A stretch of DNA of 64,000 nucleotides, taken from positions 19,025,863 to 19,089,862 of the forward strand of contig NC_089280.1 of assembly GCF_963678975.1 (NCBI RefSeq), written 5' to 3'. The notes beneath the pieces were generated by a model. That model saw only the letters and a list, made by a program, of their open reading frames with translations, searched no databases and was not told the DNA's origin. The DNA comes from Dysidea avara. Taxonomy: Eukaryota; Porifera; Demospongiae; Dictyoceratida; Dysideidae. Shown here in pieces: positions 486 to 61,925 of the stretch. The position numbers and the translations under genes are program-made. Position 1 is the stretch's first letter, and each line of letters starts with the position of its first letter.

Positions 486-886
486 TAGGGCTGGGCGGCA
501 TTGGAGTTTCGCTTCACGATATATCGTGCAGAAATATATCACGATATTACTATTTATCGCGGTTATTAAAGATGACTGCTATATTAGAGTAGCTGACTGC
601 TTTATTAGGGTATCTCGATCCTAGCTGACTGTTCTATTAGAGTATCTCGATCTTTGCAAAAAAAAATTGACTAGCTAGTACTAGGTCCTTGTTTGCAGTA
701 GTATCACGTGATTATTTGAGGTGTATTATAACAACCTTAAGGGCTTAATAAGCTGTCACAAACACTAAAAATCGTAATAATATCGATATCGTGATATTAT
801 CGTTTCACCGAAATCTACGCGATACAGATATCGTTTCATTGCAATACCGCGGTATTACTATAATACCGAGAAACCGCCCAGCCCTA
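486..886. mobile_element. hAT-type MITE, 401 bp, perfect 8-bp target duplication
   Basis: The ends are inverted (TAGGGCTGGGCGG and CCGCCCAGCCCTA) and are flanked on both sides by GTTACAAT (478-485 and 887-894). An 8-bp target duplication with short terminal inverted repeats is the hAT superfamily pattern. There is no coding capacity. The interior is full of ATATCG/CGATAT palindromic runs. It carries three copies of the dyad module CTCTATTAGAG or its variants (573-653). Confidence 0.85.
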
Positions 887-894
887 GTTACAAT

Positions 895-1694
895 TATAGT
901 TACATAGTAACTACTAATCACACTTTAAAAGCAAGAACACTCTTCAATTTGGGCTTCAGTGTTTGTACCAGACATGCTACAGCGACATTAAGTAGACACA
1001 TTCTGTGTATTCAGCTTGAGTAATAGATAGACTAATAGCAATAATTGAAACCTCGATAGTAACTGAGCTGAAATGGCCATAGAATTATTTTCAAGAACTA
1101 TAGGAATACAAAGGAATATCTGAGCAAAATGATCATGAAAATGTTAGCAAACAAGCCTACGAAAGTAATTAAAGTGCTAGCAATGTAAATGAAAGTGATT
1201 AGTAACTACCCCATGGCAAGATTACTTGCCTTGAACCACTGGGATGGAGATACCATATCAGAAACACATTTTTGCCACTAAAAAAGTTCAATATTCTATA
1301 AGCCACTGGAAATACCATCTTATATCCCTCTTTTCACAGTGATTCTATACACAATCAAGATACTCTAATAGAGCAGTCAGTTAAATACTCTAATAGAACA
1401 GTCGCTGTATGTAAAACTATTAAGAATCCTCCTCTGAGTATAAGAGAACGTGCATCTGCAACACTAACCCATAGGCACACTTAGCTATGTAGCCTGCCAG
1501 TCGAACTTTAAATTAAGTGGGCCTTTTTATTTCATTCTTATAATATGACAATTTACTTAAGTTCATAGCTGAACTCATGTCTGTCACTGATCCCTGCATG
1601 CAGTTCTTGTAGACCACTCAGAAAGTATGATTTATTACTATGAGTTAGATATTACATCAAAAAATTCAGTCCTAAGACATGGAAAATACCTATA
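895..1694. other. non-coding stretch with one dyad-module pair
   Basis: No gene or credible open frame seen. 1353-1413 holds two minus-oriented copies of the dispersed module (TACTCTAATAGAGCAGTCA and a variant 27 bp on). The 1230-1300 part shows short inverted similarity to 18000-18060. Confidence 0.5.
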
Positions 1695-2422
1695 GCAGCT
1701 GTGGAGGCATCTCCCTGCTTTATGTAGCTACCTATACTACCCTGGTCATGGTGCATCCCTTTGTCAAGCTCTGGATCTTCTCCTGGTTCACTTACATTTT
1801 ACCTTAGCTGAGCATTTCAGATTCCATACTGCTGTTCAATTTTACCAAAGACATTACCATCTTATTTACATAACTGCATACTTTGTCTGTGATAGGCCAT
1901 GCTGGGCACAATTCTCATCATTTATAAGTATATTTGCTGAACGTTAGAGAAGCCTGCTCATAAAACAACAAATGATCATAAATAAATAGTGACCCCTAAT
2001 GATCCGTGATTAAGAATAGGATACTACAAGCACCTGATGAGACAAACATTGACTTGTATAAATTTTCCTTTTTTCCCTCTGTGATTAAACTTTGGAACCT
2101 CCCTACATAGTTAATTCCCCTAATTTTTGTAATAACATATGTAATTATATCTGTGTGTTATGTGATTTCTACACAGTAAAAACAAATAATAATAATACTG
2201 GCTGAGAAGTTGGAAGATGAAAAAAGTGTATTGTTCCGCTATAGACTACCATCAATTCATTTTGTTTCTCTTTTTTTGGTAACACACCATTTTAATATCC
2301 CGAACAAGATCCAAGATCCCATTTAACATTCTATCCTTATCTACTCGGGATGCTTTTCGTCATGCTGTTAAGAATTTTTTTTGGTGCCATGTAATATTTT
2401 GTGTGTACTCTGTTTTCATGTG
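1695..2422 (+). mobile_element. LINE 3' portion, interrupted by the LTR element
   Basis: Translation gives decayed C-terminal LINE ORF2 blocks, including a DLYKFSFFPSVIKLWN-like stretch that corresponds to the conserved SFFPRTIRLWNSLP tail of CR1-like elements. A close second copy is at 30985-31725. The LTR retrotransposon 2423-7427 splits this LINE; its 3' tail resumes at 7428. Stops and gaps make it a fossil LINE. The same unit is the left end of the larger duplicated block. Confidence 0.65.
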
Positions 2423-2673
2423 TGTAACAGCACGCCAGCCGCCAGAGGAATCAGGGCAAGAAGAATCCAAGGAAGAATCGCAGCTTAACAGTTCACTTTA
2501 TTGAGGGCTAATTTGGAAGGCAACAATATACATTTAAATGCCCTATTTATACAACAAAACATGTAGTGACCTCAATGACGTGTCATGTAGTGATACAAAT
2601 AACAAAATAAAAAATCAGGTGATAACAGTCAGTCAGTCAAGTGAGTGTCACTCCATTCAGCTTCTCTATCACA
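2423..2673 (-). repeat. downstream (3') LTR, 251 bp
   Basis: Direct repeat of 7177-7427 with about two mismatches, bounded by TG...CA. The pol frame ends inside it. Confidence 0.95.
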
Positions 2674-5600
2674 CTCCTCCCTCCTTCTTCAGTATCACAC
2701 AGCTCTGTTGAGACATCTTCCCAGTATGGTAATCTGGAGAGAGCATCTGCGTTAGCATTATCAGTACCCTTCCTATGTTGCACTTGGAAGATATACGGCT
2801 GTAATGCCAGACTCCACCTCATCAGTCTACTATTGTGATTCTTGAATTTTGTGAGCCACTGTAAGGCTCTATGATCTGTCTGAATCACAAACTCTCTGCC
2901 CAGCAAGTAAACTTCAAAAGCTTCGATACCCAATTTAACAGCCAAACACTCCTTCTCAACTGTCGAGAACCGCTGCTCTCTAGGTAGAAGCTTCTTGCTA
3001 AAGAAGGATACTGGGTGATCATGTCCCTGATCATCCTGCTGGCTCAGGACAGCTCCAACCCCTACTTCGGAGGCATCTGTCTGCAAAATAAAAGATTTAG
3101 TGAAGTCTGCATTTTTCAAAACAGCAGATGACAACATTATTTCCTTTAGCTTACTAAAGGCCTTGCTACCTTCATCATCTAAACTCACATGTTCCGGAAC
3201 TGACTTTCTGGTGAGGTTGGTGAGAGGTGTAGCAATAGTGGCATAGTGAGGAATAAAACGTCTATAGTAGCCAGTTAATCCAAGGAAGGATCGCACTTGC
3301 TTCTTGGTTGTCAGAAGCGGAAACTGGGCTATTGCTTGAAGCTTGCCCCTCTCTGGCTTCACCACTCCATTCCCCACCACATGCCCTAAATACTTACACT
3401 CTGTCATAGCCAACTGGCACTTAGAAGGTTTAGCTGTCAAACCCAATGACTGAAGACGCTTCAACACTGCCTGGAGGTGTTCCAGGTGATCTTCCCAAGA
3501 ACTGCTAAACACAATGAGGTCGTCGAGGTAGGCACTGGCAAACTTGTTCATTCCTCTAATAACATGATCCATCATGCGTTGGAATGTAGCCGGTGCCCCA
3601 CACAGACCGAATGGCATCATACGGAACTGATATAACCCCTGGGGTGTGATAAAAGCAGTCTTGGGACGATCCTCTACAGCAACTGGCACCTGCCAATATC
3701 CCTTCGCCAGATCTAGAGTGGATATGTATCTAGCCTGACCCACCTGGTCCAGGATATCATCCCCCCGTGGCATCGGGTAAGCATCAACCCGTGTCACAGC
3801 ATTAAGTCTTCTGTAATCCACGCACAGCCGGATGGTGTTGTCCTTCTTCTTAACAACCACAACTGGTGAGGCCCATTCACTGCTGCAGGGCTCAATAATG
3901 CCCTCAGCCAGCATCGTCTCTACTTCCTTTTCTACAGCTTCTCTATACACATGTGGCAACCGGTATGGCTGCTGACGGACTGGAGTATCTCCTCTAATGT
4001 GAATGTGGTGTTGACAGACTGAAGTCCGTCCACATTTACCACTCATCACCGTCTTAAACTTCGCCAGCAAGTCATACAACTGCCTCAACTGTTGCTTAGA
4101 CAGCTGGTCACTTACAATAGGAGCATCACTACCCTCACACTTCCATGTGGGCATGAACTCCTCTTCCATGTCCATTTGTTCAATTGACCAAAAACTTGTA
4201 GCTACTGGTGGATACCACTTCTTCAGCATATTTACATGAAATACATTCTTCCTCTTCCTCTTATTTGGCATCAACACCTCATAATTCACCTTACCTACCC
4301 TGCGTAGTATGCGATATGGCCCTTGCCACTGAGCTAACAACTTATTACTACTAGTAGGTAACAACACAAGTACCTCCTCATCTGGCTGTAGCTCTCTCTG
4401 CCTAGCTGTCTGATCATACCACTTCTTCTGCTGTCCCTGTGCTGCTCTAACATTCTCTTCCACCAGCTCAGTCATCTCCTCCAACCGTTCACGTACTAAG
4501 AGAATATGTGACACAACACTCTCATCACTCTTCTTGTCGGCTTCCCACACTTCTTTAAGCACATCGAGTGGACCTCTAACTTCTCTTCCATATAGAAGCT
4601 CAAATGGGGAGAATCCTGTTGTGTCCTGGGGAACCTCACGATAAGCGAACAAAATGTAAGGAAGCAGCCTGTCCCAGTCTCGTCCCTCCTTATTAACAAG
4701 CTTCCTCAAGAGCGACTTCAGGGTCTTATTGAACCTCTCTACCAATCCATCAGTCTGCGGATGGTAAGGAGATGTACGGATCTGGTGTATCCGCAAGAGG
4801 TTGTACAACTCCTTAAGAAGTTGCGACATGAAGTTAGTGCCTTGATCCGACAGAATCTCTCTTGGAATGCCCACACAAGCAAATAACTGGATCAGGTGCT
4901 CTGCCACTGTACCTGCATCAATGGAACGAAGAGGCATGGCCTCTGGATACCTAGTAGCATAGTCGCACACTACCAATATATACTGGTTACCTCTTCTACC
5001 GCGGGGCAGAGGACCAACAATGTCCAAAGCTATACGCTCAAAAGGCTCCTTCATTATTGGTAGAGGTATTAGAGGTACTCTCCGATGGCTTCCCTTTGCA
5101 GTACGGTGACATTCAGGGCATCGGCGACGGTAGTCTGCCACATCATGGAATAGAGCTGGCCAAAAGAACCGTCTACTGATTCTCTTAACAGTCTTGTCTC
5201 TACCAAGGTGACCTGCTAGTGGGATAGTGTGAGCCAACTTACACACTATCTGGTGGAACTGCTCTGGTAAAACCAGTTGTTCTACAGCTTCCCCTGATTT
5301 TTTCTTCGGGGTCCACACATGATACAGCAGACCATCTTGCTCAACAAACTGCTTAGGGCTTCTCCCCCTCATATCCCGAATGCCCGGAACCTCATCCTGC
5401 AGCTTACGCAGCTCCTGTTTAGACTGATTCACATTGGGGATATCTTCTTGAAGCCTCTTAAGACATGCCCATTCATACCGGTCCTTCCTCTTGTCTGATC
5501 GTGACTTCTTTGATCTTACAGCCCTATCATCAACAAACATGTCATCACCAAAATCAAACTCACCTGACAACACAAACTGCTCGTTGCTATCCGCACTAGG

Positions 5601-5939
5601 AGAAACACTCATTTGCTCCTCCGGTTGTCCCGTGGCTACCTCAGGTTCCTGTACAGGCTCTACACTACTGGAAGAATCAGTTGATTCCCCTTGCTCTAAC
5701 TGGGCTGCCTGTGCTAGGGCCTGACGCCTAGTAACCACCATGAGGGCCTGTCCACCATCATTGGCTCTCAACAAATTCAACAGCTCAGGAACATCTGTCC
5801 CCAACAACACGGACTGTGGTAAAGTCTCGTGATACCGCAGCCTCCACTGACACAGCCTGTCCATGCACTTCCAACTCCACATTGGCAAGAGGATACACCA
5901 CAGTATCCCCGTGAGCACACTGGACTGTAACAGCCTCAC
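2637..5939 (-). CDS. retrotransposon Pol: integrase - reverse transcriptase - RNase H
   Basis: 1100-residue frame. In order: a zinc-binding HHCC domain (about residues 237-277); an integrase core with D307, D365 (SDQGTNF) and E401 (VERFNK); a GPY-type integrase tail near 540-575; reverse transcriptase (about 650-870) with CVDYRRLN, PFGLCGAPATFQRMM and catalytic YLDD at 804-807; the connection segment FLGLTGYYRRFIP; then RNase H with TDAS (954-957) and TDHRALQWL. Ordinary Ty3/gypsy Pol has integrase last; here it is first, the defining feature of Gmr1-like elements. The frame overlaps the gag-protease frame in another register, an arrangement the family commonly handles by recoding. It is the element's own gene, not a host gene. 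Confidence 0.95.
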   Translation of the reverse strand: MRLLQSSVLTGILWCILLPMWSWKCMDRLCQWRLRYHETLPQSVLLGTDVPELLNLLRANDGGQALMVVTRRQALAQAAQLEQGESTDSSSSVEPVQEPEVATGQPEEQMSVSPSADSNEQFVLSGEFDFGDDMFVDDRAVRSKKSRSDKRKDRYEWACLKRLQEDIPNVNQSKQELRKLQDEVPGIRDMRGRSPKQFVEQDGLLYHVWTPKKKSGEAVEQLVLPEQFHQIVCKLAHTIPLAGHLGRDKTVKRISRRFFWPALFHDVADYRRRCPECHRTAKGSHRRVPLIPLPIMKEPFERIALDIVGPLPRGRRGNQYILVVCDYATRYPEAMPLRSIDAGTVAEHLIQLFACVGIPREILSDQGTNFMSQLLKELYNLLRIHQIRTSPYHPQTDGLVERFNKTLKSLLRKLVNKEGRDWDRLLPYILFAYREVPQDTTGFSPFELLYGREVRGPLDVLKEVWEADKKSDESVVSHILLVRERLEEMTELVEENVRAAQGQQKKWYDQTARQRELQPDEEVLVLLPTSSNKLLAQWQGPYRILRRVGKVNYEVLMPNKRKRKNVFHVNMLKKWYPPVATSFWSIEQMDMEEEFMPTWKCEGSDAPIVSDQLSKQQLRQLYDLLAKFKTVMSGKCGRTSVCQHHIHIRGDTPVRQQPYRLPHVYREAVEKEVETMLAEGIIEPCSSEWASPVVVVKKKDNTIRLCVDYRRLNAVTRVDAYPMPRGDDILDQVGQARYISTLDLAKGYWQVPVAVEDRPKTAFITPQGLYQFRMMPFGLCGAPATFQRMMDHVIRGMNKFASAYLDDLIVFSSSWEDHLEHLQAVLKRLQSLGLTAKPSKCQLAMTECKYLGHVVGNGVVKPERGKLQAIAQFPLLTTKKQVRSFLGLTGYYRRFIPHYATIATPLTNLTRKSVPEHVSLDDEGSKAFSKLKEIMLSSAVLKNADFTKSFILQTDASEVGVGAVLSQQDDQGHDHPVSFFSKKLLPREQRFSTVEKECLAVKLGIEAFEVYLLGREFVIQTDHRALQWLTKFKNHNSRLMRWSLALQPYIFQVQHRKGTDNANADALSRLPYWEDVSTELCDTEEGGRSVIEKLNGVTLT

Positions 5940-7134
5940 CCTGTCTCAGCTTCTCGTCACTGACAAGGTCACTATGGACTAAGGTCCTAGAACAACCAGT
6001 ATCTAATACAATATCAGATACCAACTGACCTTCCACCATACCCTCACACCTACTCAAAAACTTACTCTTAGAGGATTTGTAAGGACTCCTTGCCCCACAA
6101 TAAAATGAGCCACTTGGGCATTGCCTTGACGTATGCCCCCTACCTCCACAATTGTAACATACTAAGGGCTTGTCCTCCCGTTTCTTCCTCTCTCCCTTTA
6201 CAGCAGTCTCTCCCTTCGTAGCATCCTCCCCTTTTGAGGACACTCCTGTTGCCACTTTCGTAGGGCAGTCTCTCGCCAGATGACCAGGTTGCTTACAGGT
6301 AAAACATGTCCTTTGGCTGCTTTTCTTTGGCTCCATACCAGGAACCCAAAGATCCCGCTTCCTGGCTTGTCTGTAGTCCTCAGCCAGTCGACCAGCTTCC
6401 TCACTAGTCCGCGGTTTCCTCTCCTTGACCCATACTTTAATCTCCTCAGGCAGGACCTCCACAAATTGCTCCTTCACCAACTCATCGACCACTGCCTGGC
6501 GATCTGCACGTCCCTTCAGCCACTTTTCTGCCAGATCCTGGATACGGATAACAAGCTCCACAGGAGTTTCATTCTCCTTTGGCCTCACATCACGGAATCG
6601 TCGTCGGTAGGTCTCTTCATTGATGTCGTAACGACGAAAAATGGCTGCTTTCACTCTGTCATAGTCCTTTGCGTCGTGGTCGCTCATTGCAGCATAAGCC
6701 AATCGTGCCTTCCCAGTAAGTTGAGGGGCTAGAATTGCTGCCCGCTTGTCTCTGTCCACGCCATGGGCTTCCACAGCTCTCTCGAAGGTGGTGAGAAAAG
6801 CTTCGATGTTATCATTCTCAGCCAGTTTCGTAAGCTTTAGCGACTCTGGTACCACCTCTACACGACGCGGCCTTCCCTCGGTTAGCCCTCGAACTAATTC
6901 TTCATAGTGCCTCCTGCTGGTTTCCCGTTCAAGGCGTCTCTCTTCGTCATATTGGCAACGTTCCTCTAGTCGTGCCTTCTCGAAGAGTTCGTCTCGTTCT
7001 TCTCTACGGTTCTCCTCTTGTCTGCGGGATTCCTCCATCCAGGCCTTCAGTAGCTCTGCTACTTCTGACATTGCTGGTTCTGTCTCAGGTTGGTAGCTCC
7101 TCCCCGAGCGCAGCATACGCGAGCTAGCTAGCAA
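5785..7134 (-). CDS. retrotransposon Gag with SCAN-like capsid, zinc knuckles and protease
   Basis: 449-residue frame. A charged, Glu/Arg-rich coiled-coil-like stretch spans residues 33-80. Residues about 172-256 hold a SCAN-like capsid block (RRRFRDVRPKENETPVEL, then EQFVEVLP and WVKERKP), which has the typical SCAN signature. Two CCHC zinc knuckles follow (C277-C290, C326-C339) and then an aspartic protease start with DTGCS (378-382). SCAN domains of vertebrate zinc-finger proteins are known to derive from Gmr1-like Gag, which agrees with the integrase-first Pol downstream. The ATG lies about 40 bp after the upstream LTR. Gag would form particles packing the element RNA. Confidence 0.9.
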   Translation of the reverse strand: MLASSRMLRSGRSYQPETEPAMSEVAELLKAWMEESRRQEENRREERDELFEKARLEERCQYDEERRLERETSRRHYEELVRGLTEGRPRRVEVVPESLKLTKLAENDNIEAFLTTFERAVEAHGVDRDKRAAILAPQLTGKARLAYAAMSDHDAKDYDRVKAAIFRRYDINEETYRRRFRDVRPKENETPVELVIRIQDLAEKWLKGRADRQAVVDELVKEQFVEVLPEEIKVWVKERKPRTSEEAGRLAEDYRQARKRDLWVPGMEPKKSSQRTCFTCKQPGHLARDCPTKVATGVSSKGEDATKGETAVKGERKKREDKPLVCYNCGGRGHTSRQCPSGSFYCGARSPYKSSKSKFLSRCEGMVEGQLVSDIVLDTGCSRTLVHSDLVSDEKLRQGEAVTVQCAHGDTVVYPLANVELEVHGQAVSVEAAVSRDFTTVRVVGDRCS

Positions 7135-7176
7135 GCTTAGTAGCTGTAGAACGAATCGACCACTCCTGTCACCAGG

Positions 7177-7427
7177 TGTAACAGCACGCCAGCCGCCAGA
7201 GGAATCAGGGCAAGAAGAATCCGAGGAAGAATCGCAGCTTAACAGTTCACTTTATTGAGGGCTAATTTGGAAGGCAACAATATACATTTAAATGCCCTAT
7301 TTATACAACAAAACATGTAGTGACCTCAATGACGTGTCATGTAGTGATACAAATAACAAAATAAAAAATCAGGTGATAACAGTCAGTCAGTCAAGTGAGC
7401 GTCACTCCATTCAGCTTCTCTATCACA
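7177..7427 (-). repeat. upstream (5') LTR, 251 bp
   Basis: Direct repeat of 2423-2673, bounded by TG...CA and followed by the target duplication ATGTG at 7428-7432. It presumably holds the element's promoter; I cannot single out a start site. Confidence 0.95.
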
Positions 7428-7610
7428 ATGTGATTTTTTGTAAATAGCTTTATTTTTCTGTGTATTGTTTGAGTGTTTTTGTATGTAGTAGGTAGTTTTG
7501 TGTGTGTATATAATTATGTAAAGTTTGTGGGGAAGCACCTTTGTGCAGGCATCGCCTTTTGGTGCCACCCCTTCCTCTTTGGATAAAATAGATAATAAAT
7601 AAATAAAATA
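7428..7610 (+). mobile_element. 3' tail of the LINE split by the LTR element
   Basis: Continues the LINE of 1695-2422 and matches 31722-31910. It ends in an AATAAATAAATAAA-type tail near 7590-7610, typical of CR1/L2-like LINE 3' ends. ATGTG at 7428-7432 is the duplicated target. Confidence 0.65.
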
Positions 7611-7854
7611 GCTACAATCTCTCACTACGTGTGGTAAGCATGCAATCCATTCACACTCATTAAACCATGTTCAGTTAAAAGATCAATGCCTAAGCATTGT
7701 ACTCTTTCTAAAATTGATAAGCTATATAGTTAAGACTCAAGACACCATTGTATTTCTGCCGTGCATTGCAGAAGTTCCAAGAAACACTCAGAAAGTGATG
7801 GCATGATATGATACTGAGTAGTGAGGATCAGTAGACAAAAACTAATGTGTATAG

Positions 7855-18300: not shown

Positions 18301-18319
18301 TTTTAACAAAAAATCACTA

Positions 18320-19090
18320 TCAAGACACACGGTAGTGTGTCGTGCGGCCCAAGATTCCGGCGCTCCACACCGTGAGTATATTTACAGGAAGAAAGTAAAC
18401 GCAATTTTCACACCTTTGTAGCTCTGTGATGCTTTAATCAGCTTTATCCGATTGAAACCAAAGTTGCTACAGAAGTGCCGGGTAGGTAGGGGAGTCCACA
18501 TCCCAAATTTGAAGAAAATCGCTCAAGCCATTTCCGAGATACGAGTTGCCAAAGATTGGGTTTTTTTTCTTCGTTTTTTTCTTCTACTTCTTTTCGCACA
18601 CTTTGCAAAATCCGCCATAAAACACGAATGCGTGCTCCAATTGGGCTGAAATTTTTCACACTTAAAGGGCTCATTAAGGCGAATCTCAGTACCAAGTTTG
18701 GTAGGAATCCGATGAACATTCACGGAATTATGACCGATTATTTGCGTACAATAAGGTCGAAGGTCTGTCACGCCCACAGGGTAAACCGCTTGAAGGAATG
18801 AGCTGAAAATTGCTATGTAGATGGAGTAACTATCGTAGGAGTGCCTTTTTGTGTTTGAAAGGAATCCAGTTAAAAGCCATCGAGATATGACACAAAACCC
18901 AACCTATGTCACAATTACGCGATTGATTTTTATGAACAATAAACTATTAGTTTTCACGCCTACCAGGCAAACCGCTTAGAGCAGTGAGCTGAAAATCGGT
19001 GTGTAGCTGGAATAATTATCATAGAAAGTCCTTGCAGTAGTACAGAAGAATCGGTGTACAAACCACTGAGTTATGAACCAACTACGTGTA
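18320..19090 (+). repeat. composite repeat 1, unique head
   Basis: About 770 bp closely matching 38893-39665 in the same orientation. Both start at the same base, TCAAGACACACGGTAG, preceded by A, and both open with a GC-rich imperfect hairpin (CACGGT...ACCGTG over about 47 bp). The interior is not convincingly coding: open frames here do not hold in copy 2. At its right edge the dyad module (19091-19140) leads into the 31-bp minisatellite. The A/TC start is compatible with a Helitron 5' end, but no CTRR 3' end was found. Confidence 0.75.
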
Positions 19091-19149
19091 GCATATGCGA
19101 GATCGAGATACTCTAATAGAACAGTCACCCTAATAGAGCATTCAACTAC

Positions 19150-21400
19150 GTTTATAACTTACTCCATAATAGAATTATATTGCGTTGCAAGTTATTCTGT
19201 AGGGAGTTCAGCTACAAACAGTTAATCTCATAGACAATTCAGCTACAAGCAAGTCACCCTGTAGAGAGTTCAGCTACAAATATGTCGCTGTAGAGATTCA
19301 GAACATTATAAGTCACACTGAAGAAAATTCAGTTATAAACAAGTCATCCTGTAGAGACTTCAGCTACAAACAAGTCACTGCGTAGAGGGTTCAGCTACAA
19401 AAAAGCTACCCAGTAGAGAGTTCATCTAGATCAGCTACAAACAAGTTACTTTATACAATGTTCAGCTACAAGTAAGTCACTCTGTAGAGAGTTCAGCTAC
19501 AAAGAAACCACCATGTAAAGAGTTCAACTGCAAACAAATCACCCTGTAGAGAGTTCAGCTATGAACATATCACCCTATAGAGTTCAGCTAGAAAAAGTCA
19601 TCCTGTAGAGAGATCAGCTAGAAGGATCACCTTGTAGAGAGTTCAACTGCAAATAAATCACCCTGCAGATAGTTCAGCTACAAACAAGTCACCCTGTAGA
19701 GAGATCAGCTAGAAGAAGTTACCTTGTAGAGAGTGCGGCTACAAAGAAACCACCATGTAGAGAGTTCAGCTGCAAATAAATCATCTGTAAAGAGTTCAGA
19801 CAGAAACAAGTTTACCCTGTAGAGAGATCAGCTAGAAACAAGTCACCCTGTAGATAGATCAGCTACAAAGAAACCATCCTGTAGAGAGTTCAATTACAAA
19901 CAGATAACACTATAGAGAGTTCAGCTAGAAACAAGTCACCGTGTAGAGAGATCAGCTAGAAACAAGTCATCCAGAGATCAGCTAGAAACAAGTCACCGTG
20001 TAGAGAGATCAGCTAGAAACAAGTCATCCAGAGATCAGCTAGAAATAAGTCACCCTGCAGAGAGATCAGCTAGAAACAAGTCACCCTGTAGAGAGATCAG
20101 CTACAAAGAAACCATCCTGTAGAGAGTTTAGCTACAATCAAGTTACACTATAGAGAGATCTGCTAGAAGCAAATCATCTTGTAGAGAGTTCAGTTGCAAA
20201 AAAATCATCCTGTAGAGAGTTCAGCCACCCTGTAGAGAGTTCAGCTAGAACAAGTCACCTTGTAGAGAGTTCAGCTACAAAGAAACCACCATGTAGAGAG
20301 TTTAGCTACAAACAAATCATCTGTAGAGAGTTCAGCCAGAAACGAGTTCACCCTGTAGAGAGATCAGCTAGAAATAAGTCACCCTGTAGAGAGATCAGCT
20401 ACAAAGAAACCATCCTGTAGAGAGTTCAATTACAAACAGATCACCCTATCAGCTAGAAACAAGTCACCGTGTAGAGAGATCAGCTAGAAACAAGTCACCC
20501 TGTAGAGAGATCAGCTAGAAACAAGTCACCCTGTAGAGAGATCAGCTAGAAACAAGTCACCCTGTAGAGTGATCAGCTACAAAGAAACCATCCTGTAGAG
20601 AGTTCAATTACAAACAGATAACCTTATAAAGAGTTCAGCTAGAAACAAGTCACCGCGTAGAGAGATCAGCTAGAAACAAGTCACCCTGTAGAGAGATCAG
20701 CTAGAAACTAGTCACCTTGTAGAGAGATCAGCTACAAAGAAACCATCCTGTAGATATTTCAGCTACAATCAAGTTACACTATAGAGAGATCAGCTAGAAA
20801 CAAATCATCTTGTAGAGAGTTCAGTTGCAAACAAATCACCCTGTAGAGAGTTCAGCCACCCTGTAGAGAGTTCAGCTAGAATAAGTCACCTTGTAGAGAG
20901 TTCAGCTACAAAGAAACCACCAAGTAGAGAATTCAGCTGCAAACAAATCACCCTGTAGATAGTCCAGCTAGAAACAAATCATCCTGTAGAGAGTTCAGCA
21001 AGAAATAAATCAACCTGAAAAGAGTTCAGCTACAAACAACAGGGGCGGATCCAGAGTTTGGAAAGAGGGGGGGGCACCTTTCTGAAAAACAGTTTCAGAC
21101 CAAAAAAAAAAAAAAAAAAGGTCACGACAATAATAGCTAGTTATACTTACCAACTATATCACGTCTGTTATGTAAAATAAAATCCTATTTATAGCTTCAT
21201 AGGTAAGCTACACTGCCTCATGAACATTGTGACTGCTTTATTAGAGTAATTGACTGCTCTATTAGAGTATCTCGATCTTGTATGCAATTTCTTGAAGGGG
21301 GGGGGGGGGGGCATTTGCCCCAAATGCCCCATCCTGGATCCGCCACTGAACAATGAGAGTTTCAACTACAGTTCAGTTATGTAAGAAGTCACCTTATTAA
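19150..21400 (+). repeat. minisatellite array 1, unit about 31 bp
   Basis: Tandem units of the type GTAGAGAGATCAGCTAGAAA plus CAAGTCACCCT, diverged at a few positions per unit. The period of 31 bp is not a multiple of three and no long frame crosses it. Variants alternate (AAAGAAACCATCC and GAAACAAGTCACC types), giving local higher-order order around 19800-20800. A MITE (21040-21348) is inserted near its right end and the array resumes after it. Confidence 0.9.
21040..21348 (-). mobile_element. MITE with CAGKGGCGGATCC ends, in minisatellite 1
   Basis: Ends CAGGGGCGGATCC and GGATCCGCCACTG; 5-bp direct repeat AACAA on both sides (21035-21039, 21349-21353). It is an inverted-orientation relative of 27520-27869, sharing the poly-A/poly-G tracts and the 'ttatagcttcataggtaagc' interior. 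It includes a pair of dyad modules at 21229-21290. Non-coding. Confidence 0.8.
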
Positions 21401-26802: not shown

Positions 26803-27149
26803 CAGGGTCCCAGAGAAATTAAGGGGCCCAGGGCAAAGAGTTAAAGTGGGGCCCTTGACCCAAGTTGGAAGGTGAAGACCAAAAAAAAAAAAAAAGGTCA
26901 CAACCTGCTGGCAATGACAATAATTACCCATCACCAACCATATCTCCTTATCTATAAGCTTGCTACACTGCTCCTCTGAAGAATACTGTGACTGCTCTAT
27001 TAGAGTATTTAGATCTGACTGCTCTATTAGAGTATATCGATCTTTTAAACAGGTATTCAGGGGGCCCTTCATGGGGTCTCCTGGGGCCCCTTTCAGGCTG
27101 GGGCCCGGGGCAAAATGCCCCAGTTACCCCCCCCCTGTGGGCGGCCCTG
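26803..27149. mobile_element. hAT-type MITE, 347 bp, perfect 8-bp target duplication
   Basis: Ends CAGGGTCCCAGAG and GGGCGGCCCTG; flanked by TATGTGGT at 26795-26802 and 27150-27157. Non-coding, with a poly-A run, GGGGCCC-rich ends and two dyad modules (26990-27050). Confidence 0.85.
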
Positions 27150-27519: not shown

Positions 27520-27869
27520 CAGTGGCGGATCCAGGATGGGGCATTTGGGGCAAATGCCCCCCCCCCCCCCCCCCCCCCCCCTTCAAGAAATTGCATACAA
27601 GATCGAGATACTCTAATAGAGCAGTCAATTACTCTAATAAAGCAGTCACAATGTTCATGAGGCAGTGTAGCTTACCTATGAAGCTATAAATAGGATTTTA
27701 TTTTACATAACAGACGTGATATAGTAGGTAAGGATAACTAGCTATTATTGTCGTGACCTTTTTTTTTTTTTTTTTGGTCTTCAACTGGTTTTCAGTAAGT
27801 TTTTTTGGTCTTCAACTGTTTTTCAGAAAGGTGCCCCCCCCCTCTTTCCAAACTCTGGATCCGCCCCTG
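27520..27869 (+). mobile_element. MITE with CAGTGGCGGATCC ends, 350 bp
   Basis: Ends CAGTGGCGGATCC and GGATCCGCCCCTG; 5-bp target duplication CATGG (27515-27519, 27870-27874). Reverse-orientation relative of 21040-21348, with poly-C, poly-T and a pair of minus-oriented dyad modules (27600-27650). Non-coding. Confidence 0.85.
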
Positions 27870-28309: not shown

Positions 28310-28482
28310 CTTCAGAGAAATACAAAATGTGGCTGTTCTATTAGAGTGGTTGACTGCTCTATTAGAGTATTTCGATCTGAACTTTTGTACCATTGCAAAT
28401 CACTGTAAAATATAATTTTAATTACCTGAATACACTTGACCAGTTTCTGGAAACCTCAGAAACCCCCCTAGATCCGCCCCTG
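28310..28482. mobile_element. MITE fragment ending in GATCCGCCCCTG
   Basis: The right end AGATCCGCCCCTG matches the termini of 27520-27869. The inner part (ACCTCAGAAACCCCCC) is the complement of the start of 45184-45260, so the two belong to one subfamily. It contains a dyad-module pair (28332-28378). Left end unclear. Confidence 0.55.
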
Positions 28483-38400: not shown

Positions 38401-38892
38401 TTCATTTCAGTGCTAAACCTTTGAAAGTATACACATGAATATCCAGTTTGTTTGTTAATAATACTGGGCATGGCTGAATGAAAACAGACTCACTTACAAA
38501 TAGCCCAACCTTTGACTCCATATAACTCTTGAGATTCACAATTACTGATGGACAACATAAGTTGCGAGATTCTCACAATAGCTATACCATTGCCTCATAC
38601 TAATAGGAATTCCACAGGGAATTTAATCAACCTTACATCAATACAGGGAAATTTGGACATCATGCAAAATACCAACATTGCTCCATACTTCCTGGTGGAA
38701 GTGAGTGAGATGTGGCATTAATGTCTGAATCTTTGTGCAATATCACAATTTTTCAATAGAGCATGTCAGTGAGTTTCTCACTACTGGTAAGTATCTTTTT
38801 GTTTATAAATTTGTCAAAGATATATCCCTAACTTTAACCCACACTTGGGTCTCGATACTTTCTTGTGTCTCCTGATGAGAGCAGCCGTATAA
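38401..38892. other. no feature seen
   Basis: No gene or partner repeat recognised between the LINE fragment and the second composite repeat. Confidence 0.4.
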
Positions 38893-39665
38893 TCAAGACA
38901 CACGGTAGTGTGTCGTGCGGCCCAAGAAGCCGGCGCGCCACACCGTGAGTATATTGACAGGAAGAACGAAAACGTCGTTTTCACACCTTTGTATCTCGGT
39001 GATCACTTATCTGATTGGAACCAAATTTGCTACACAGTTGCCCGCCAGCCAAGGGAGTCTACATTCCAAATTTGAAGGACATCGCTACAGTCATTTCCGA
39101 GATACGAGCTGCCAAAGTTTCGTTTTTTTTTTCTTCGTTTTTTTTTCTTCTTCGTCTTTTCGCACACTTGCAAAAATTGCTATAACAAGCAAACGCGTAC
39201 TCCGATCGCCTTGAAATTTGGCACACAGAAAGGGAGTCCCAAGGCGAATCCTAGCATCAAATTTGGTACAAATCCGATGAATGGTTCAGCAGTTATGACC
39301 GATTATTCGCGTAAAACAAGATCGATTTGTTGTCACGCCTACAGTGTAAACCGCTTCATGGAACGAGTTGAAAATTGCTATGTAGATGGAGTAACCATCG
39401 TAGGAGTGCCTTTTGGTGGTTTGAAAGGAATCGAGATAAAGACCACGGAGATATGACACAAAACCCAACCTGTGTCACAATTACGCGATCGATTTTTATG
39501 AATAAAAAAGTATTAGTTTTCACGCCTACTAGGCAAACCGCTTAGAGCAATGAGCTGAAAATCGGTGTATAGCTGGAATAATCTTCATAGAAAGTCCTTG
39601 CAGTAGTACAGAAGAATCGGATTACAAACCACTGAGTTATGATTCGAAAGCCAACTCCGTGTAGC
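38893..39665 (+). repeat. composite repeat 2, unique head
   Basis: Starts TCAAGACACACGGTAG after an A, as copy 1 does at 18320, and matches it to the dyad module (39670-39720). The opening hairpin is more GC-rich here (GCCGGCGCGCCACACCGTG). A 99-codon frame at 38915 is not kept in copy 1. Confidence 0.75.
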
Positions 39666-39724
39666 AAATGCGAGATCGAGATACTCTAATAGAACAGTCA
39701 CCCTAATAGAGCATTCGGCTAATT

Positions 39725-42700
39725 TATTTACTCCATTATAGAATTTTATTACATCACAAGTTATTCTGTAGGGAGTTCAGCTGCAAACAGTTAATCTTAT
39801 AGACAGTTTAGCAAGAAGACAGTCACCATGAGGAGAGTTAAGCAAATATATCACTATAGAGATTCAGAACATTACAAGTCACACTGAAGAAAGTTCAGCT
39901 ATAAACAAGTCATGCACTGTGTAGAAAATTCAGCTACAATTAAGTCACTCTCTAGAGAATTCAGTTACACAGAATTCAGCTACACACAAGTCACTGTGGA
40001 GAGAGTTCAGCTACAAACAAATTACCCGTTAGAGTGATCAGCTACAAACAAAACACTTTGCAGGGTGTTCAACTGCAACAAATCAACCTTTACAGCAATC
40101 AGCAATGAACAAATCAACACAAATCTACCTGTAGAGAGATCAGCTAGAAACAAATCACCCTGAAGAGAGTTCAGCTACAAAAAATCACCCTGTAGAGACA
40201 TCAGCTAGAAACTAGACACAATGTAAGGAGTTCAGCTACAAGCAATCACCCTGTAGAGAGTTCAGCTAAAACAAATCAACCTGCAGAGAGATCAGCTACA
40301 AACAAATCACCTTATAGAGAGTTCAACTACAAACAGATTACCTGTAGAGAGATTGGCTACAAACAAATCAACTTGCAGAGAGATCAGCTACACACAAATC
40401 AACTTGTAGAGAGATCAGCTACAAACAAATCACCCTGTAGAGAGATCAGCTAGAAACTAGACACAATGTAAGGAGTTCAGTACAAATAAATCACCCTGTA
40501 GAGAGTTCAGCTAAAACAAATCAACCTGCAGCGAGATCAGCTACAAATAAATCACCTTTTAGACAGTTCAGCTACAAATAAATTACCTTGTAGAGAGATC
40601 GGCTACAAAACAAATCAACCTGCAGAGAGATCAGCTACACACAATTCAACTTGTAGAGAGATCAGCTACAAACAAATCACCCTGTAGAGAGATCAGCTAG
40701 AAACTAGACACAATGTAAGGAGTTCAGCTACAAGCAAATCACCGTGTAGAGAGTTCAGCTACAAACAAACCAACCTGTAGAGCGATCAGCTAGAAACAAA
40801 TCACCCTGAAGAGAGGTCAGCTACAAAAATCACCCTGTAGAGATATCAGCTAGAAACAAATCACCCTGAAGAGAGGTCAGCTACAAAAAATCACCTTGTA
40901 GAGAGATCAACTACAAACAAAACATTTTGTAGAGAGTTCAGCTACAAACAAATCAACCTTTAGAGCGATCAGCAACAAACAAATCAACCTGTAGAGAGAT
41001 CATATAGAAACAAATCAACCTGCAGAGTGATCAGCTACAAACAAATCAGCTTGTAGAGAGATCAGTTACACACAAATCAACCTGTACAGAGATAAGCTAA
41101 AAACAAATCAGAGTTCAGCTAAAACAAATTAATCTACAGAGAGATTAGCTACATACAAATCACCTTATAGATAGTTCAGCTACAAACAAATTACCTTCTC
41201 CAGAGATCGGCTACAAACAAATCACCCTGCAGAGAGATCAGCTACACACAATCAACTTGTATAGAGATCAGCTACAAACAAATCACCCTGTAGAGAGATC
41301 AGCTAGAAACTACACACAATGTAAGGAGTTCAGCTACAAACAAATCACCCTGTAGAGAGATCAGCTACAAACTAGACACAAAGTAAGGAGTTCAGCTACA
41401 AGCAAGTTACCCTGTAGAGAGTTCATCTACAAGCAAATCAACCTGCAGAGCAATCAGCTAGAAACAAATCACCCTGAAGAGAGGTCAGCTACAAAAAATC
41501 ACCCTGTAGAGAGATCAGCTAGAAACAAATCACCCTGAAGAGAGATCAGCTACAAATAAATCACCCTGTAGAGAGATCAGCTACAAACAAATTGCCCTGT
41601 AGAGAGATCGGCTACAAACAAATCAACCTGCAGAGAGATCAGCTACACACAAATCAACTTGTAGAGAGTTCAGCTACAAACAAATTACCCTGTAGAGAGA
41701 TCGGCTACAAACAAATCAGCCTGTAGAGAGTTCAGCTAAAACAAATCAACCTGCAGAGAGATCAACTACAAACAAATTACCTTATAGAGAGTTCAGCTAC
41801 AAACAAATTACCCTATAGAGTGATCGGCTACAAACAAATCAACCTGCAGAGAGATCAGCTACACACAAATCAACTTGTAGAGAGATCAATTACAAACAAA
41901 TCACCCTGTAGAGAGATCAGCTAGAAACTACACACAATGTAAGGAGTTCAGCTACAAATAAATCACCCTGTAGAGAGTTCAGCTAAAACAAATCAACCTG
42001 CAGAGAGATCAGCTACAAACAAATCACCTTTTAGACAGTTCAGCTACAAATAAATTACCTTGTAGAGAGATTGGCTACAAACAAATCAACCTGCAGAGAG
42101 ATCAGCTACACACAATTCAACTTGTAGAGAGATCAGCTACAAACAAATCACCCTGTAGAGAGATCAGCTAGAAACTAGACACAATGTAAGGAGTTCAGCT
42201 ACAAGCAAATCACCATGTAGAGAGTTCAGCTACAAACAAACCAACCTGTAGAGCGATTAGCTAGAAACAAATCACCCTGAAGAGAGGTCAGCTACAAAAA
42301 ATCACCCTGTAGAGATATCAGCTAGAAACAAATCACCCTGAAGAGAGGTCAGCTACAAAAAATCACCTTGTAGAGAGATCAACTACAAACAAAACATTTT
42401 GCAGAGAGTTCAGCTACAAACAAATCAACCTTTAGAGCGATCAGCAACAAACAAATCAACCTGTAGAGAGATCATATAGAAACAAATCAACCTGCAGAGT
42501 GATCAGCTACAAACAAATCAGCTTGTAGAGAGATCAGTTACACACAAATCAACCTGTACAGAGATAAGCTAAAAACAAATCAGAGTTCAGCTAAAACAAA
42601 TCAATCTGCAGAGAGATTAGCTACATACAAATCACCTTATAGAGAGTTTAGCTACAAACAAATTACCCTATAGAGTGATCGGCTACAAACAAATCAACCT

Positions 42701-44640
42701 GCAGAGAGATCAGCTACACACAAATCAACTTGTAGAGAGATCAATTACAAACAAATCACCCTGTAGAGAGATCAGCTAGAAACTACACACAATGTAAGGA
42801 GTTCAGCTACAAATAAATCACCTTGTAGAGTGTTCAGCTAAAACAAATCAACCTGCAGAGAGATCAGCTACAAACAAATCACCTTTTAGACAGTTCAGCT
42901 ACAAATAAATTACCTTGTAGAGAGATCGGCTACAAACAAATCAACCTGCAGAGAGATCAGCTACACACAATTCAACTTGTAGAGAGATCAGCTACAAACA
43001 AATCACCCTGTAGAGAGATCAGCTACAAACTAGACACAAAGTAAGGAGTTCAGCTACAAGCAAGTTACCCTGTAGAGAGTTCATCTACAAGCAAATCAAC
43101 CTACAGAGCAAGCAGCTAGAAACAAATCACCCTGAAGAGAGGTCAGCTACAAAAAATCACCCTGTAGAGAGATCAGCTAGAAACAAATCACCCTGAAGAG
43201 AGGTCAGCTACAAAAAAATCACCCTGTAGAGAGATCAACTATAAACAATCACCCTGAAGAGAGGTCAGCTACAAACAAAACACTTTGCAGAGAATTCAGC
43301 TACAAACAAATCAGCTTGTAGAGAGATCAGTTACACACAAATCAACCTGTAGAGAGATAAGCTAGAAACAAATCACCCTGCAGAGAGTTCAGCTACAAGC
43401 AAAACACCCTGTAGAGAGTTCAGCAACAAAGAAACCACCATGTAGATAGTTCAGCTGCAAACAAATCACCTTACAGAGAGTTCAGCTACAAACAAATCAC
43501 TCTGTAGAGAGATCAGCTAGAAACTGGACACAATGTAAGGAGTTCAGCTACAAGCAAATCACCCTTTAGTAAGTTCAGCTACAAACAAATCAACCTGCAG
43601 TGAGATCACCTACAAAAAAGCACCTTGTACAGAGTTCAGCTACAAACAAATTACCCTGTAGAGAGATCGGCTACAAACAAATCAACCAGTTGAAAGATCA
43701 GCTACACACAAATCAACTTGTAGAGAGATCAGCTACAAACAAATCACCCTGTAGAGAGATCAGCTAGAAACTACACACAATGTAAGGAGTTCAGCTACAA
43801 GTATATCACCCTGTAGAGAGTTCAGCTAAAACAAATCAACCTGCAGAGAGGTCAGCTACAAATAATCACTTTATAGACAGTTCAGCTACAAACAAATTAC
43901 CTTGTAGAGAGATCGGCTGCAAATTAATCAACCTGCAGAGAGATCAGCTACACACAAATCAACTTGTAGAGAGATCAGCTACAAACAAATCACCCTGTAG
44001 AGAGATCAGCTAGAAACTAGATACAATGCAAGGAGTTCAGCTACAAGCAAAATCACCCTTTAGTGAGTTCAGCTACAAACAAATCAACCTGCAGTGAGAT
44101 CACCCACAAAAACGCACTTGTACAGAGTTCAGTTACAAACAAATCACCCTGTGGAGAGATCAGGTAGAAGAATTCACCTTGTAGAGAGTTCAGCAACAAA
44201 GAAACCACCATGTAGAGAGTTCAGCTGCAAACAAATCACCCAGTAGAAAGATCAGCTAGAAGAAGTTACCTTGTAGAGAGTTCAGTTACAAAGAAACCAT
44301 CATATAGAGAGTTCAGCTACAAAGAAATTACCCCGTAGAGAATTCAGCTAGAAGAAGTCACCTTGTAAAGAGTTTAGCTACAAAGAAACCATCATGTACA
44401 GAGTTCAGCTACAAAGAAACCATCATGTAGAGAGTTCGGCTACAAAGACACCACCATGTAGAGAGTTTAGCTGCAAACAAATCACCTGTAGAGAGTTCAG
44501 CTAGAAACAAAATACCCTGTAGAGAGACCAGCTAGAAGAGGTTACCTTGTAGAGAGTTCAGCTACAAAGAAACCATCCTGTATATAGTTCAGCTACATTT
44601 CAAGTCACCCAGTAGAGAGATCAGCTGCAAAAAAAATCCT
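39725..44640 (+). repeat. minisatellite array 2, unit about 31 bp, with higher-order repeats
   Basis: About 4.9 kb of units of the type GTAGAGAGATCAGCTACAAA plus CAAATCACCCT. A marker variant (ACACAATGTAAGGAGTTCAG) recurs at about 40211, 40453, 40695, then 41930, 42173 and 43525, 43768, 44012, a spacing of 242-244 bp (eight units, one shortened). A larger copy of about 1.47 kb links 40470-41160 to 41941-42640 almost base for base. No frame crosses it. The last 450 bp return to the AAGAAACCATC type seen in array 1. Confidence 0.9.
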
Positions 44641-45175: not shown

Positions 45176-45183
45176 AGACACTT

Positions 45184-45260
45184 TAACAGTGGCGGATCTA
45201 GATGGGTTTCTGGGGTTTCAACAGAACCCCCCTTTTAAATTTAGCTCAGTGGCAGTATAA
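45184..45260 (+). mobile_element. MITE left-end fragment, CAGTGGCGGATC family
   Basis: Begins CAGTGGCGGATCTAG, then TTTCTGGGGTTTC and AACCCCCC; the complement of the end of 28310-28482. No right end found. Confidence 0.45.
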
Positions 45261-46860
45261 ATACATATACATTGTTGTACTGACAATTTGTCATATTAAA
45301 CAACTATATACACAGAGAGAATCATCATTATTAAATGAGGAAACATGTAAATAGTACATTACAGTATGATGAGACCTTGGTCTCATGCGACCACTCTTAG
45401 AAGAGATCTGTGTGGGCACGGCAAGGTTAAACAAACAAACAAAAAACCCTAAACCTACATGCAAAAATAGAAATTTGTTACATTATTACACATAAACTAT
45501 GCTGTCCACTCACTGCAATTCCTTGAAAAGAAAATTTTCTGTGAGCAGGATATGCACACCTTAGCAGCATCGTCAAAAGTCTGTCGAATAGAAGACTTGG
45601 TGGTGGTTGAAGGGTGGATGAAATCAACAAAACTCTTGCAATTCTGAATACAGCTGGGCTGATAGTGTCCTAGCATACTAATTTAAACTGTTTTGTAATA
45701 GTTATTGATCCTCAAACGATCAAATTCTGCAAGTAGCTGTAAGTACTCTGTCTTAATAATGACTATATGTATTTAGCTTTCAGGTTGCATATACAAGGTA
45801 TTCTTTCATCTGCATGCTGGTATAAATTGCTATTCCATGCACTATGAGGCCTGGGAAATGTAAGGCTCTAGCTCCACACTAAGAATCAAATTATATAATG
45901 TTCAACACAATGATAAGATAATTGTCAGAGCAGAGTTCATGGTTACTGTATCAGCAAAGAGTTTTGAATATTAATTGAGATGTTTATTTAAGTGCATTTT
46001 GACTGTTCCTCCTATAATTATTGTTCAATTATCTGATATCTTGTTGGTTTCCCTCCATCCTCTTTACTGATCCCTCTTTACTGATTTTATATGACTAGAA
46101 AATCTGTACACCTTGTCAATCCAGTTACAACAGTTGATCTAAATATGATGATGATACAGTTATTGAGACGAGGAGATACATAGTGTTTCCCTACAGTGCC
46201 ACAACACACAAACACTTGAAATGTAATCTGAGACTTACGTGTATAGCTGCAGTGAACTAAGTAAGATCACTATAGCTGCTGGTAAGCATTGCGTCGTATT
46301 ACCATCCATCAGTGCTTGTGCAATAAATTGTCTGTAGTATGAATTCAGTCAAAATTATGCATAGCTAGCTGTGTAGTAATTTATTACACACCCAGTTAAC
46401 ACTTAAGTTTGAGCATAAGATGCCCGAAGTATTTACCACATATATTTTGTAAATAATATTATAAAAAAGATTAATATGCTCTAATAGAACAGCCAATAGC
46501 CAGCTGTGTAGTAATTGTGAACTAATTAGGCACTTGCTAATTATGAGCATAATCTAAAGCATTTACCACAGATATGAGATGTTGTAAATAGTAAATGAAT
46601 GCCCCAGTAAACATAAATCTATAGAACAGTCTGTCTATTCTACACTGTAAATTCATACTTCCAAATTTACAGTGTGAACAGTCTGTAATGTGCATGCCTT
46701 TATCAAACAATATGACAGGTGCACATGTTTGACTCTCCAAGATAATAATATTATTGCTAATTTCAAAATATCAGTCATCTAAATGTTACCATTAAATTTT
46801 TAACAATTTTGTTGTTCCCCCAGTGAGACTATCAATCACTATAACAAAAATGATTAATAT
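45261..46860. other. no gene seen; one local direct repeat
   Basis: 46365-46455 and 46500-46590 are an imperfect direct repeat (agctgtgtagtaatt ... atttaccaca). 46466-46492 holds a single weak dyad module (GCTCTAATAGAACAG). Otherwise nothing recognised. Confidence 0.45.
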
Positions 46861-49205: not shown

Positions 49206-49262
49206 TTAGCTTGCACTTGCGTCTATCTATACTTTGTGGTTAGTACACAACACTCACTGCTA

Positions 49263-60564: not shown

Positions 60565-61235
60565 CATACAGTACGGCAGTACTGTATATTAGGGATCATG
60601 CAGAACTGGGCTTTTCCAGCCAAAATATCACCCTAAAACTCACCTCAATTTCCCTTCATGACAAATTGGCAGTATTAGTTAGGCACAGTCAAGCCCAAAA
60701 ATGTCTTCAGACCAACTCTAAACCCTTCCAAAAAGTTTCTGTGAAAGTTAAAAAAAAATTATATTTAACAGAATTTTATTCTGACTAACTAACTAACTGA
60801 CTGATGCCTTCCACCGAGCATAGTTCAATAATGGATATAGCTACAGGCTTGAATCTTCACTATTCGATGTTGCTTCATCCCGAGACATGCCTTCTCGCCA
60901 ACCACAGTACGTACAATACACGCATCATGGACCTCCTTTGTGTTCCAGTTTTTTTCACTGACAACGCAAGGTGTCGATTTGTGATAGCGTGATGTGGCTT
61001 CCCTGTGGCTGTGCCTGTATTTTCCGTAGCAACTGGATTGATTGCAGAGATGCTTCTCATACATACTATTCTTCGTTTGTAACATTGTGTAATGGACTGA
61101 AGTAGGTGAAAGCAAAGTGTAATGGCCACTGTTAGTAGTTGCCAGCTCACGAATCATCCGTATTTTTCGTGGTTACTGGATTGATTGCAAAAGTGCTTTT
61201 CCTACTGTTCTTCATTTATAGTGCTGTATAACGGG
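60565..61235. repeat. dispersed repeat, copy 1, in the ABL intron
   Basis: Matches 63175-64000 in the same direction: 'cagtactgtatattagggatcatg' at the start, 'caagccca', a 'gatgttgcttcatcc' versus 'aacgtcgctttgtcc' stretch, and two successive copies of 'actggattgattgcaaa' (61033, 61178). Decayed, with no open frame of note. It may derive from a retroelement tail. Confidence 0.65.
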
Positions 61236-61384
61236 GTTGATATCAAAACGTAATGGCTACTTTACTTTTGAGTCAGAAATTGATACCTGGGGTGCACGTT
61301 CAGACAAAACATTAACTCTGGTGCCATCCTTTCTTTTGATACGTTATGCGTGGGTTCACCAGTCATATGAAAAAATAGGAACAT

Positions 61385-61560
61385 TGAGTTCGATTAAGGA
61401 TCACGAAATAAAAAGTAGGAAACAAGGGAGGTCGCCTACACCTGCAGATATACTAGTGGACATTTAATCCCTAATTCAGTGACTGAAGTAGGGATTAACA
61501 ATGTCTACTAGTATATCTGCAGGTAACTTAAAATTCCTAATTTTTCCTTATACTTGTCAT
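61385..61560. mobile_element. palindromic MITE, relative of 28590-30340
   Basis: AAACAAGGGAGGTCGCCTAC and CACCTGCAGATATACTAGTG fold back onto CACTAGTATATCTGCAGGT-type complement across a centre near 61480. Same family as the MITE split by the LINE at 28.7 kb. Confidence 0.6.
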
Positions 61561-61814
61561 TATAAACATGGCTGTGATATGAGTGATATGAGGTTCAGCC
61601 ATGCGTCATGATGTAGTCACCACTACATTATGTCTTTTAGTACTGTTCAATAGTATGTAAGAGAAAGAAAGGCTAGATATGAGGCTATTATAGTCCAAAA
61701 ATTGAGCATTGTGCATTCAGTGCTCCAAAAATTATCTATTGTGCTTTTGACTACATTCTGTAGCCAATAATTTCAGTTTATTGTTGTATTAGACTATTTT
61801 GTTATTTATTCTTT

Positions 61815-61925
61815 TAACTGGCTGCTGTATTAGAGCAGTTCATGTCTATTTCACTGTTTTATTAGAGTAGTAATATTGTGTGACTGTTCTGTGACTGCTC
61901 TATAGAGTATCAGAGTATCTTGATT
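61815..61925 (+). repeat. cluster of degenerate dyad modules
   Basis: Three or four weak copies of the TATTAGAG(T/C)A module in a row, ending in GAGTATCTTGATTTTT. No surrounding terminal repeat recognised. Confidence 0.5.

What the first reader, a model, noticed from the sequence alone, without database searches (positions are those of the whole stretch)
573..61925. A short dyad module recurs in at least ten unrelated repeats
The 11-mer CTCTATTAGAG is a perfect dyad around its central T (CTCTA-T-TAGAG). It is usually preceded by TGACTG, followed by TATCTCGATC, and comes in tandem pairs about 20-35 bp apart. I see it at 573-653, 1353-1413, 19091-19140, 21229-21290, 26990-27050, 27600-27650, 28332-28378, 39670-39720, 46466-46492 and 61815-61925. 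The hosts differ: two hAT-type MITEs with 8-bp duplications, MITEs with CAGKGGCGGATCC ends, the composite minisatellite repeat, and stretches with no element I can define. Shared descent of the hosts does not explain this. It may be a captured regulatory site, a transposase or host-factor binding site, a small-RNA target, or a preferred insertion cassette.
Basis: partly seen in the sequence, partly recalled or inferred. Interest (0 to 1): 0.75.

Follow-up and report, generated by a model that had tools for sequence, protein, structure and literature searches.

The report
Folding repeat riding unrelated mobile elements
A short tandem DNA motif turns up inside several unrelated kinds of mobile repeat in this animal-like genome window, and its differences between copies are of the sort that would keep an RNA hairpin intact on one strand, so it looks like a captured cassette that may have a job rather than random debris.

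Summary
The module is real. An unbiased ranking of dispersed 13-mers puts it first. "Ten unrelated repeats" is too many. D and F are one MITE; E shares inner sequence with them; G shares their end; C and H are one composite repeat; A is a separate hAT-type MITE; B, I and J have no definable element. That leaves about six host lineages, three of them defined repeats. New here: two units fold into a 14-pair RNA stem with a central U•U. In eight pairs the stem cells are 81 Watson-Crick, 29 G-U, 0 A-C, 2 other; four ordinary palindromes of the window give 10 G-U and 14 A-C. RNA energies favour the module strand at ten of ten loci; DNA parameters barely do. Against: no double compensatory changes, five variable pair-keeping sites only, no genome, no expression data. 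Best reading: a tandem stem-loop cassette captured by transposons, possibly selected as RNA; a new variant of tandem repeats riding MITEs.

The parts
486..886 (.). Host A: hAT-type MITE, ends TAGGGCTGGGCGG, 8-bp duplication GTTACAAT
573..652 (+). Module A: three units (573, 594, 626)
1352..1404 (-). Module B: two units, host not definable
18319..21039 (+). Host C: composite repeat (single-copy part, then 31-bp minisatellite), 79% identical to 38892-41683
19100..19144 (-). Module C: two units at the junction of single-copy part and minisatellite
19079..19151 (.). 9-bp direct repeat CAACTACGT (19079-19087 and 19143-19151) around module C; absent in H
21040..21348 (+). Host D: MITE, ends CAGKGGCGGATCC, 5-bp duplication AACAA
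21230..21277 (+). Module D: two units
26803..27149 (+). Host E: hAT-type MITE, TATGTGGT on both sides (exact strings), ends alike only in CAGGG and nearby
   Evidence: not reported by the automatic end search
26989..27042 (+). Module E: two units in full 27-bp tandem
27520..27869 (-). Host F: second copy of the D MITE, 5-bp duplication CATGG
27601..27648 (-). Module F: two units, letters identical to module D
28330..28377 (+). Module G: two units, 105 bp inside a CAGGGGCGGATCT end at 28470-28482; other end not found
38892..44635 (+). Host H: second copy of the composite repeat with longer minisatellite
39673..39717 (-). Module H: two units, in a 49-nt run identical to C
46466..46495 (-). Module I: one unit, between two diverged direct repeats (46361-46458, 46496-46593)
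61819..61930 (+). Module J: two units plus a degenerate third at 61892-61925

Best explanation
It is a short tandem cassette, about 45-80 bp in most arrays, made of 19-27 bp units. It entered several unrelated mobile repeats (at least one hAT-type MITE, the CAGKGGCGGATCC MITE lineage and a minisatellite-bearing composite) as internal cargo and is copied with them. Shown: recurrence, host types, array structure, and that two units on one strand can pair into a 14-pair stem with a central U-U mismatch while the linker (loop) varies in length. Inferred: capture during repair of transposon copies. Inferred with less confidence: the stem is kept because RNA read from the module strand must fold, for instance as a binding site for a double-stranded-RNA or processing factor that makes insertions in transcribed DNA less harmful or less silenced.
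For: Recurrence. Different hosts. Strand-specific pairing: 81 WC, 29 G-U, 0 A-C, 2 other over 8 pairs (F and H dropped as second copies of D and C; unit A2 used in two pairs); without the fixed G-U positions 14 G-U to 0 A-C. Control: four other palindromes give 10 G-U and 14 A-C. 15 of 15 transitions counted per host lineage keep a pair (P 0.0002 if independent); per site 5 of 5, P 0.06. RNA energies: module strand lower at 10 of 10 loci; five loci by the fold tool, module strand -11.5 to -17.3, other strand -4.4 to -10; with DNA parameters the two strands of the same five differ by 0.2-0.5 kcal/mol. C against H: 49 identical columns at the module in an 84% alignment; 111 of 5000 column shuffles reach such a run anywhere. 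The covariance model scores the nine multi-unit loci at E 3e-9 or better, but all nine were in it; outside its rows it adds 61892-61925 (E 5e-4) and the single unit I (E 0.05).
Against: No pair keeps its pairing through changes on both sides, so there is no true covariation, and the tool's column shuffles reach the observed scores in 500 of 500. Only five kinds of pair-keeping change exist. The asymmetry was noticed before it was tested. Two transversions (units A1 and J1) break a pair. Array A folds no better than its shuffles (z -0.3) and not as this hairpin in context. For B and G the z-scores of the two strands against dinucleotide shuffles differ little (-1.91 and -1.66; -2.30 and -1.91). 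Of random 50-mers 21.6% show a strand difference of 4.3 kcal/mol or more. D against E shows no significant excess of conservation in the module by substitutions (p 0.12). No transcript evidence.
Confidence: 0.45

Rival explanations
1. A neutral leftover: one old element with a tandem-repeat core spread the module; hosts picked up or descend from pieces of it, and the module has no function.
For: MITEs and Helentron-type elements that carry tandem repeats are known (passages of PMC7492417; titles in the reference list of PMC6947457). D, E, F and G share sequence beyond the module. B has weak links: z 5.9 with D upstream, and BLAST matches to D and G that run 20-30 bp past the module. A BLAST match of A to C also runs past it (83 bp, 72%), though one search gives no significant flank score for that pair.
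Against: In the flank test A, C/H and J score with no other lineage above z 3.5, and I only with F (z 4.3). Neutral decay should give A-C as often as G-U mismatches (control).
Confidence: 0.3
2. A double-stranded DNA binding site: a dimeric host factor (in the manner of a CENP-B box) or a transposase binds the dyad, and unrelated repeats converge on or keep it.
For: Perfect 11-nt dyad, tandem spacing, letters T10 to G15 of the unit invariant in 20 of 20 units.
Against: A symmetric DNA site should tolerate changes alike on both strands; the changes go one way. Orientation to the nearer end differs between A and D/E/F/G. Hosts with different ends would be expected to use different transposases.
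Confidence: 0.18
3. The module is itself a small element that jumped into the hosts (nested insertion).
For: Unrelated hosts with a sharp border of similarity. Locus C has a 9-bp direct repeat, CAACTACGT, on both sides of a 55-bp stretch with the module (3 of 300 shuffles as long).
Against: The other nine loci have no direct repeat beyond chance, and H, the sister copy of C, lacks this one. E and G share 25 of 33 aligned letters just upstream of the module, so in that lineage the border is not an insertion point.
Confidence: 0.07

Closest known systems
Tandem repeats riding on MITEs (Xstir of Xenopus; GTCY microsatellite MITEs; BrickBuilt of Porphyromonas)
   Same: Short tandem units inside a MITE (titles and table lines in PMC6947457; abstract of PMC4596501).
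   Different: In what I saw the repeat belongs to one element family. Here the same unit sits in several, in arrays of one to three clear units, with a one-strand folding signature.
Cg_HINE non-autonomous Helentrons of oyster
   Same: Modular elements that combine flanks with central tandem repeats, some arisen independently (passages of PMC7492417).
   Different: Those lack target duplications (same passages). Hosts A, D, E and F have terminal motifs and target duplications of hAT type.
hAT5 transposons (5-bp duplications)
   Same: 5-bp duplications at D and F; hAT5 is defined by 5-bp duplications (passage of PMC12730594).
   Different: Concerns the host, not the module; I identified no transposase.
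Conserved central domains shared by unrelated SINEs (V, Deu, Ceph types; recalled)
   Same: A short conserved core shared by otherwise unrelated non-autonomous elements.
   Different: SINEs are RNA-copied; the hosts here are DNA transposon derivatives and a minisatellite composite.
CENP-B box (recalled)
   Same: A short motif of similar length recurring in unrelated repeats.
   Different: Different sequence; here the variation is strand-asymmetric.

Membership tests
hAT-type MITE (hosts A and E) | Short, terminal inverted repeats, 8-bp target duplication | tested here: met
   A: 401 bp, 13-nt ends without mismatch, GTTACAAT on both sides. E: 347 bp, TATGTGGT on both sides, ends alike only in about the first five letters; the automatic search did not report E, so E is the weaker case.
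hAT5-type MITE (hosts D and F) | Terminal inverted repeats and 5-bp duplication | tested here: met
   AACAA and CATGG, 13-nt ends with one mismatch.
hAT5-type MITE (hosts D and F) | Mobilised by a hAT5 transposase | not testable with these tools
   No whole genome is held.
MITE-borne tandem repeat | Tandem units inside a MITE | tested here: met
   A, D, E and F.
MITE-borne tandem repeat | Repeat confined to one element family (as in the examples seen) | tested here: not met
   Also in C/H, and in B, I and J without a definable element.
Known structured RNA family | Rfam match | tested here: not met
   None at gathering score in the window. Below the cut-offs: mir-558, 16.7 bits of 90, E 0.94, at module D, and mir-4423, 23.1 of 78, E 0.053, at 18407-18483 in host C away from the module; I take both as chance.
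Conserved RNA stem-loop | Compensatory double changes | tested here: not met
   0 of 16 pairs, 0 of 14, 0 of 6.
Conserved RNA stem-loop | One-sided changes keep pairs on one strand | tested here: met
   control; few independent sites (site-level P 0.06).
Transposase subterminal repeat | Fixed place and orientation near ends of elements with the same transposase | tested here: inconclusive
   In D, E, F and G the last unit faces the nearer known end, 71 to 107 bp away; in A the TGACTG side faces the nearer end, 87 bp away (read).

The most novel reading that the evidence does not exclude
An RNA stem-loop cassette is shared by, and selected in, unrelated DNA-transposon derivatives of one genome: a portable RNA signal that helps inserted MITEs coexist with genes they land in.
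Probability: 0.22. Interest if true: 0.8.

Novelty: new variant of a known kind. Interest (0 to 1): 0.52.

Why it matters
DNA transposon relics such as MITEs do not need RNA of their own to move. If their shared cargo is selected as RNA, that points to a host-element bargain acting on transcripts, and it gives a short, testable motif. If it is neutral, it is still a clear case of one tandem unit present in unrelated mobile repeats.

Tried and rejected
Collections: the 20-mer TGACTGYTCTATTAGAGTAT has no exact match in viral contigs or genome contigs. Two shorter patterns gave 3 and 6 viral contigs; 30 bases on each side of each match show no second unit and no wider module, so I count all nine as chance. 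A minisatellite pattern gave none in viral contigs.

Module as part of the 31-bp minisatellite: not significant (0.102 and 0.054 of 500 shuffles in the better orientation). tRNA origin: no tRNA found, bacterial settings. Automatic search for inverted ends with duplications: none for C and E, only low-scoring candidates with 3 mismatches or 4-bp duplications for B, G, H, I, J. The G-like end at 45187 shows no module where G has one, but its other end is missing, so it does not prove an empty form. Nested insertion: see the rival; one locus of ten.

Literature: three spellings of the module returned 8 papers; I read only the listing, and the titles do not concern this subject. Searches (20 of 40 listed) gave nothing on this module in titles and abstract openings. 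The library is open-access papers only.

Full report
Observation. Module words are at the top with ten loci; the 60 rows printed, of 220, are all module words. The recurrence is therefore not a choice effect.

Array structure. Units come singly (I), in pairs (B, C, D, E, F, G, H), in threes (A), or as two clear units plus a degenerate third (J). Spacing is 17 to 32 bp. The last unit runs on into TATCTCGATC exactly in A, C, D, F and H and into close variants in B, E, G and J; linkers between units differ in length and letters. Ten of the 15 positions from T5 to A19 are invariant in 20 of 20 units: T5, G6, T8, T10 to G15 and G17.

Hosts. A is a 401-bp MITE, 486-886, with inverted ends TAGGGCTGGGCGG and the 8-bp duplication GTTACAAT. 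D (21040-21348) and F (27520-27869) are two copies of one MITE with CAGKGGCGGATCC ends and 5-bp duplications AACAA and CATGG; hAT families with 5-bp duplications are named hAT5 (passage of PMC12730594). E (26803-27149) has TATGTGGT on both sides and inner sequence related to D and F (z 8.3 and 11.1). G has one CAGGGGCGGATCT end at 28482, scores with D and F on that side (z 5.7 and 10.0), and just upstream of the module has 25 of 33 aligned letters in common with E (that side did not reach z 3.5). C and H are two copies of a composite repeat, 84% identical in the single-copy part, with the module at the border of a 31-bp minisatellite. B, I and J could not be assigned. Between lineages the flank test gives only B-D (z 5.9) and F-I (z 4.3), on which I do not rely. 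So ten loci make about six host lineages, three of them defined repeats.

Insertion marks. In a search for direct repeats within 40 bp on both sides of each block, nine loci show nothing beyond shuffles. C has CAACTACGT at 19079-19087 and 19143-19151 (3 of 300 shuffles as long); H does not. This could be the mark of an insertion that H has lost, or chance among ten loci.

Folding. The dyad extends to 15 nt, TGCTCTATTAGAGTA, in which G6 faces T18; on the module strand that is a G-U pair, on the other strand an A-C mismatch. Two units in tandem pair into a 14-pair stem with a central U-U and a loop of variable length. I counted stem cells in eight pairs, leaving out F and H as second copies of D and C and using unit A2 twice: 81 Watson-Crick, 29 G-U, no A-C, 2 other; leaving out the fixed G-U sites, 14 to 0. 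In four other palindromes of the window the count is 10 G-U and 14 A-C, so the window has no general bias of that kind. Counted per host lineage, 15 of 15 transitions keep a pair (P 0.0002 if independent); counted per site, 5 of 5 (P 0.06). The truth lies between, since copies may share ancestry. RNA folding of the module strand is lower in energy than of the other strand at 10 of 10 loci. With DNA parameters the difference is 0.2 to 0.5 kcal/mol in the five loci tested. RNA is therefore a more natural reading than single-stranded DNA.

Against the RNA reading. No pair is kept through changes on both sides. Shuffling letters within columns reaches the observed scores every time, because the variation is one-sided. 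Two transversions break a pair. Array A does not fold better than its shuffles, and for B and G the z-scores of the two strands are close. Single units can also fold on themselves with a three-base loop (97.2% of cells paired), so I cannot say which of the two stems would be the real one. Transcription-linked strand bias in mutation could give a similar pattern; it too would mean that the module strand is transcribed, but without selection. That last point is general knowledge, not tested.

Conservation. C and H share a run of 49 identical columns that covers the module; 111 of 5000 column shuffles reach such a run anywhere. D and E do not show a significant difference by substitutions between module and upstream flank (46 of 48 against 59 of 69, p 0.12), though the flank alignment has many gaps. 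Evidence for selection by conservation alone is moderate.

Mechanism. I think most likely that the tandem unit was captured by several non-autonomous elements as internal cargo, as tandem repeats are in other MITEs and Helentrons, and was then copied with them. That capture is inferred; no empty form was found. Whether it is kept for a function is open. If it is, the substitutions point to RNA of one strand.

Known or new. Riding of tandem repeats on MITEs is known. The same unit in several families, with one-strand folding, I did not see in the listings, which cover an open-access library only. The organism is not given. I suspect a demosponge from recalled sequence style; no call tests this.

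Noticed in passing
2422-7427: LTR element (LTRs 2422-2673 and 7176-7427, 99.2% identical) whose long pol ORF (2637-5945, minus) has integrase domains before reverse transcriptase and RNase H, the reverse of the usual Ty3/gypsy order; recalled as Gmr1-like.
   Followed up: partly
21983-22347 and 44829-45184: Two copies of a palindrome of about 330 bp (91 and 95% self-complementary), each downstream of one of the two minisatellite composites; they may be the 3' part of the same composite.
   Followed up: partly
46861-47755: A 0.9-kb palindrome, about 92% self-complementary, some 370 bp from module I.
   Followed up: no
45187-45226: A lone CAGTGGCGGATCT end, 85% like the G end over 40 bp, with no module at the matching distance and no partner end found.
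   Followed up: partly
1718-2425, 7434-7833 and 9516-11003 against 31001-31723, 31736-32135 and 32163-33603: A duplicated block, 85-87% identical; the LTR element lies between the first two pieces of one copy only.
   Followed up: no
22801-23178, 25778-26416 and 52928-53548: Related ORFs (22801 region 84 and 76% identical to the other two over about 180 bp) without a Pfam match at 0.001.
   Followed up: no
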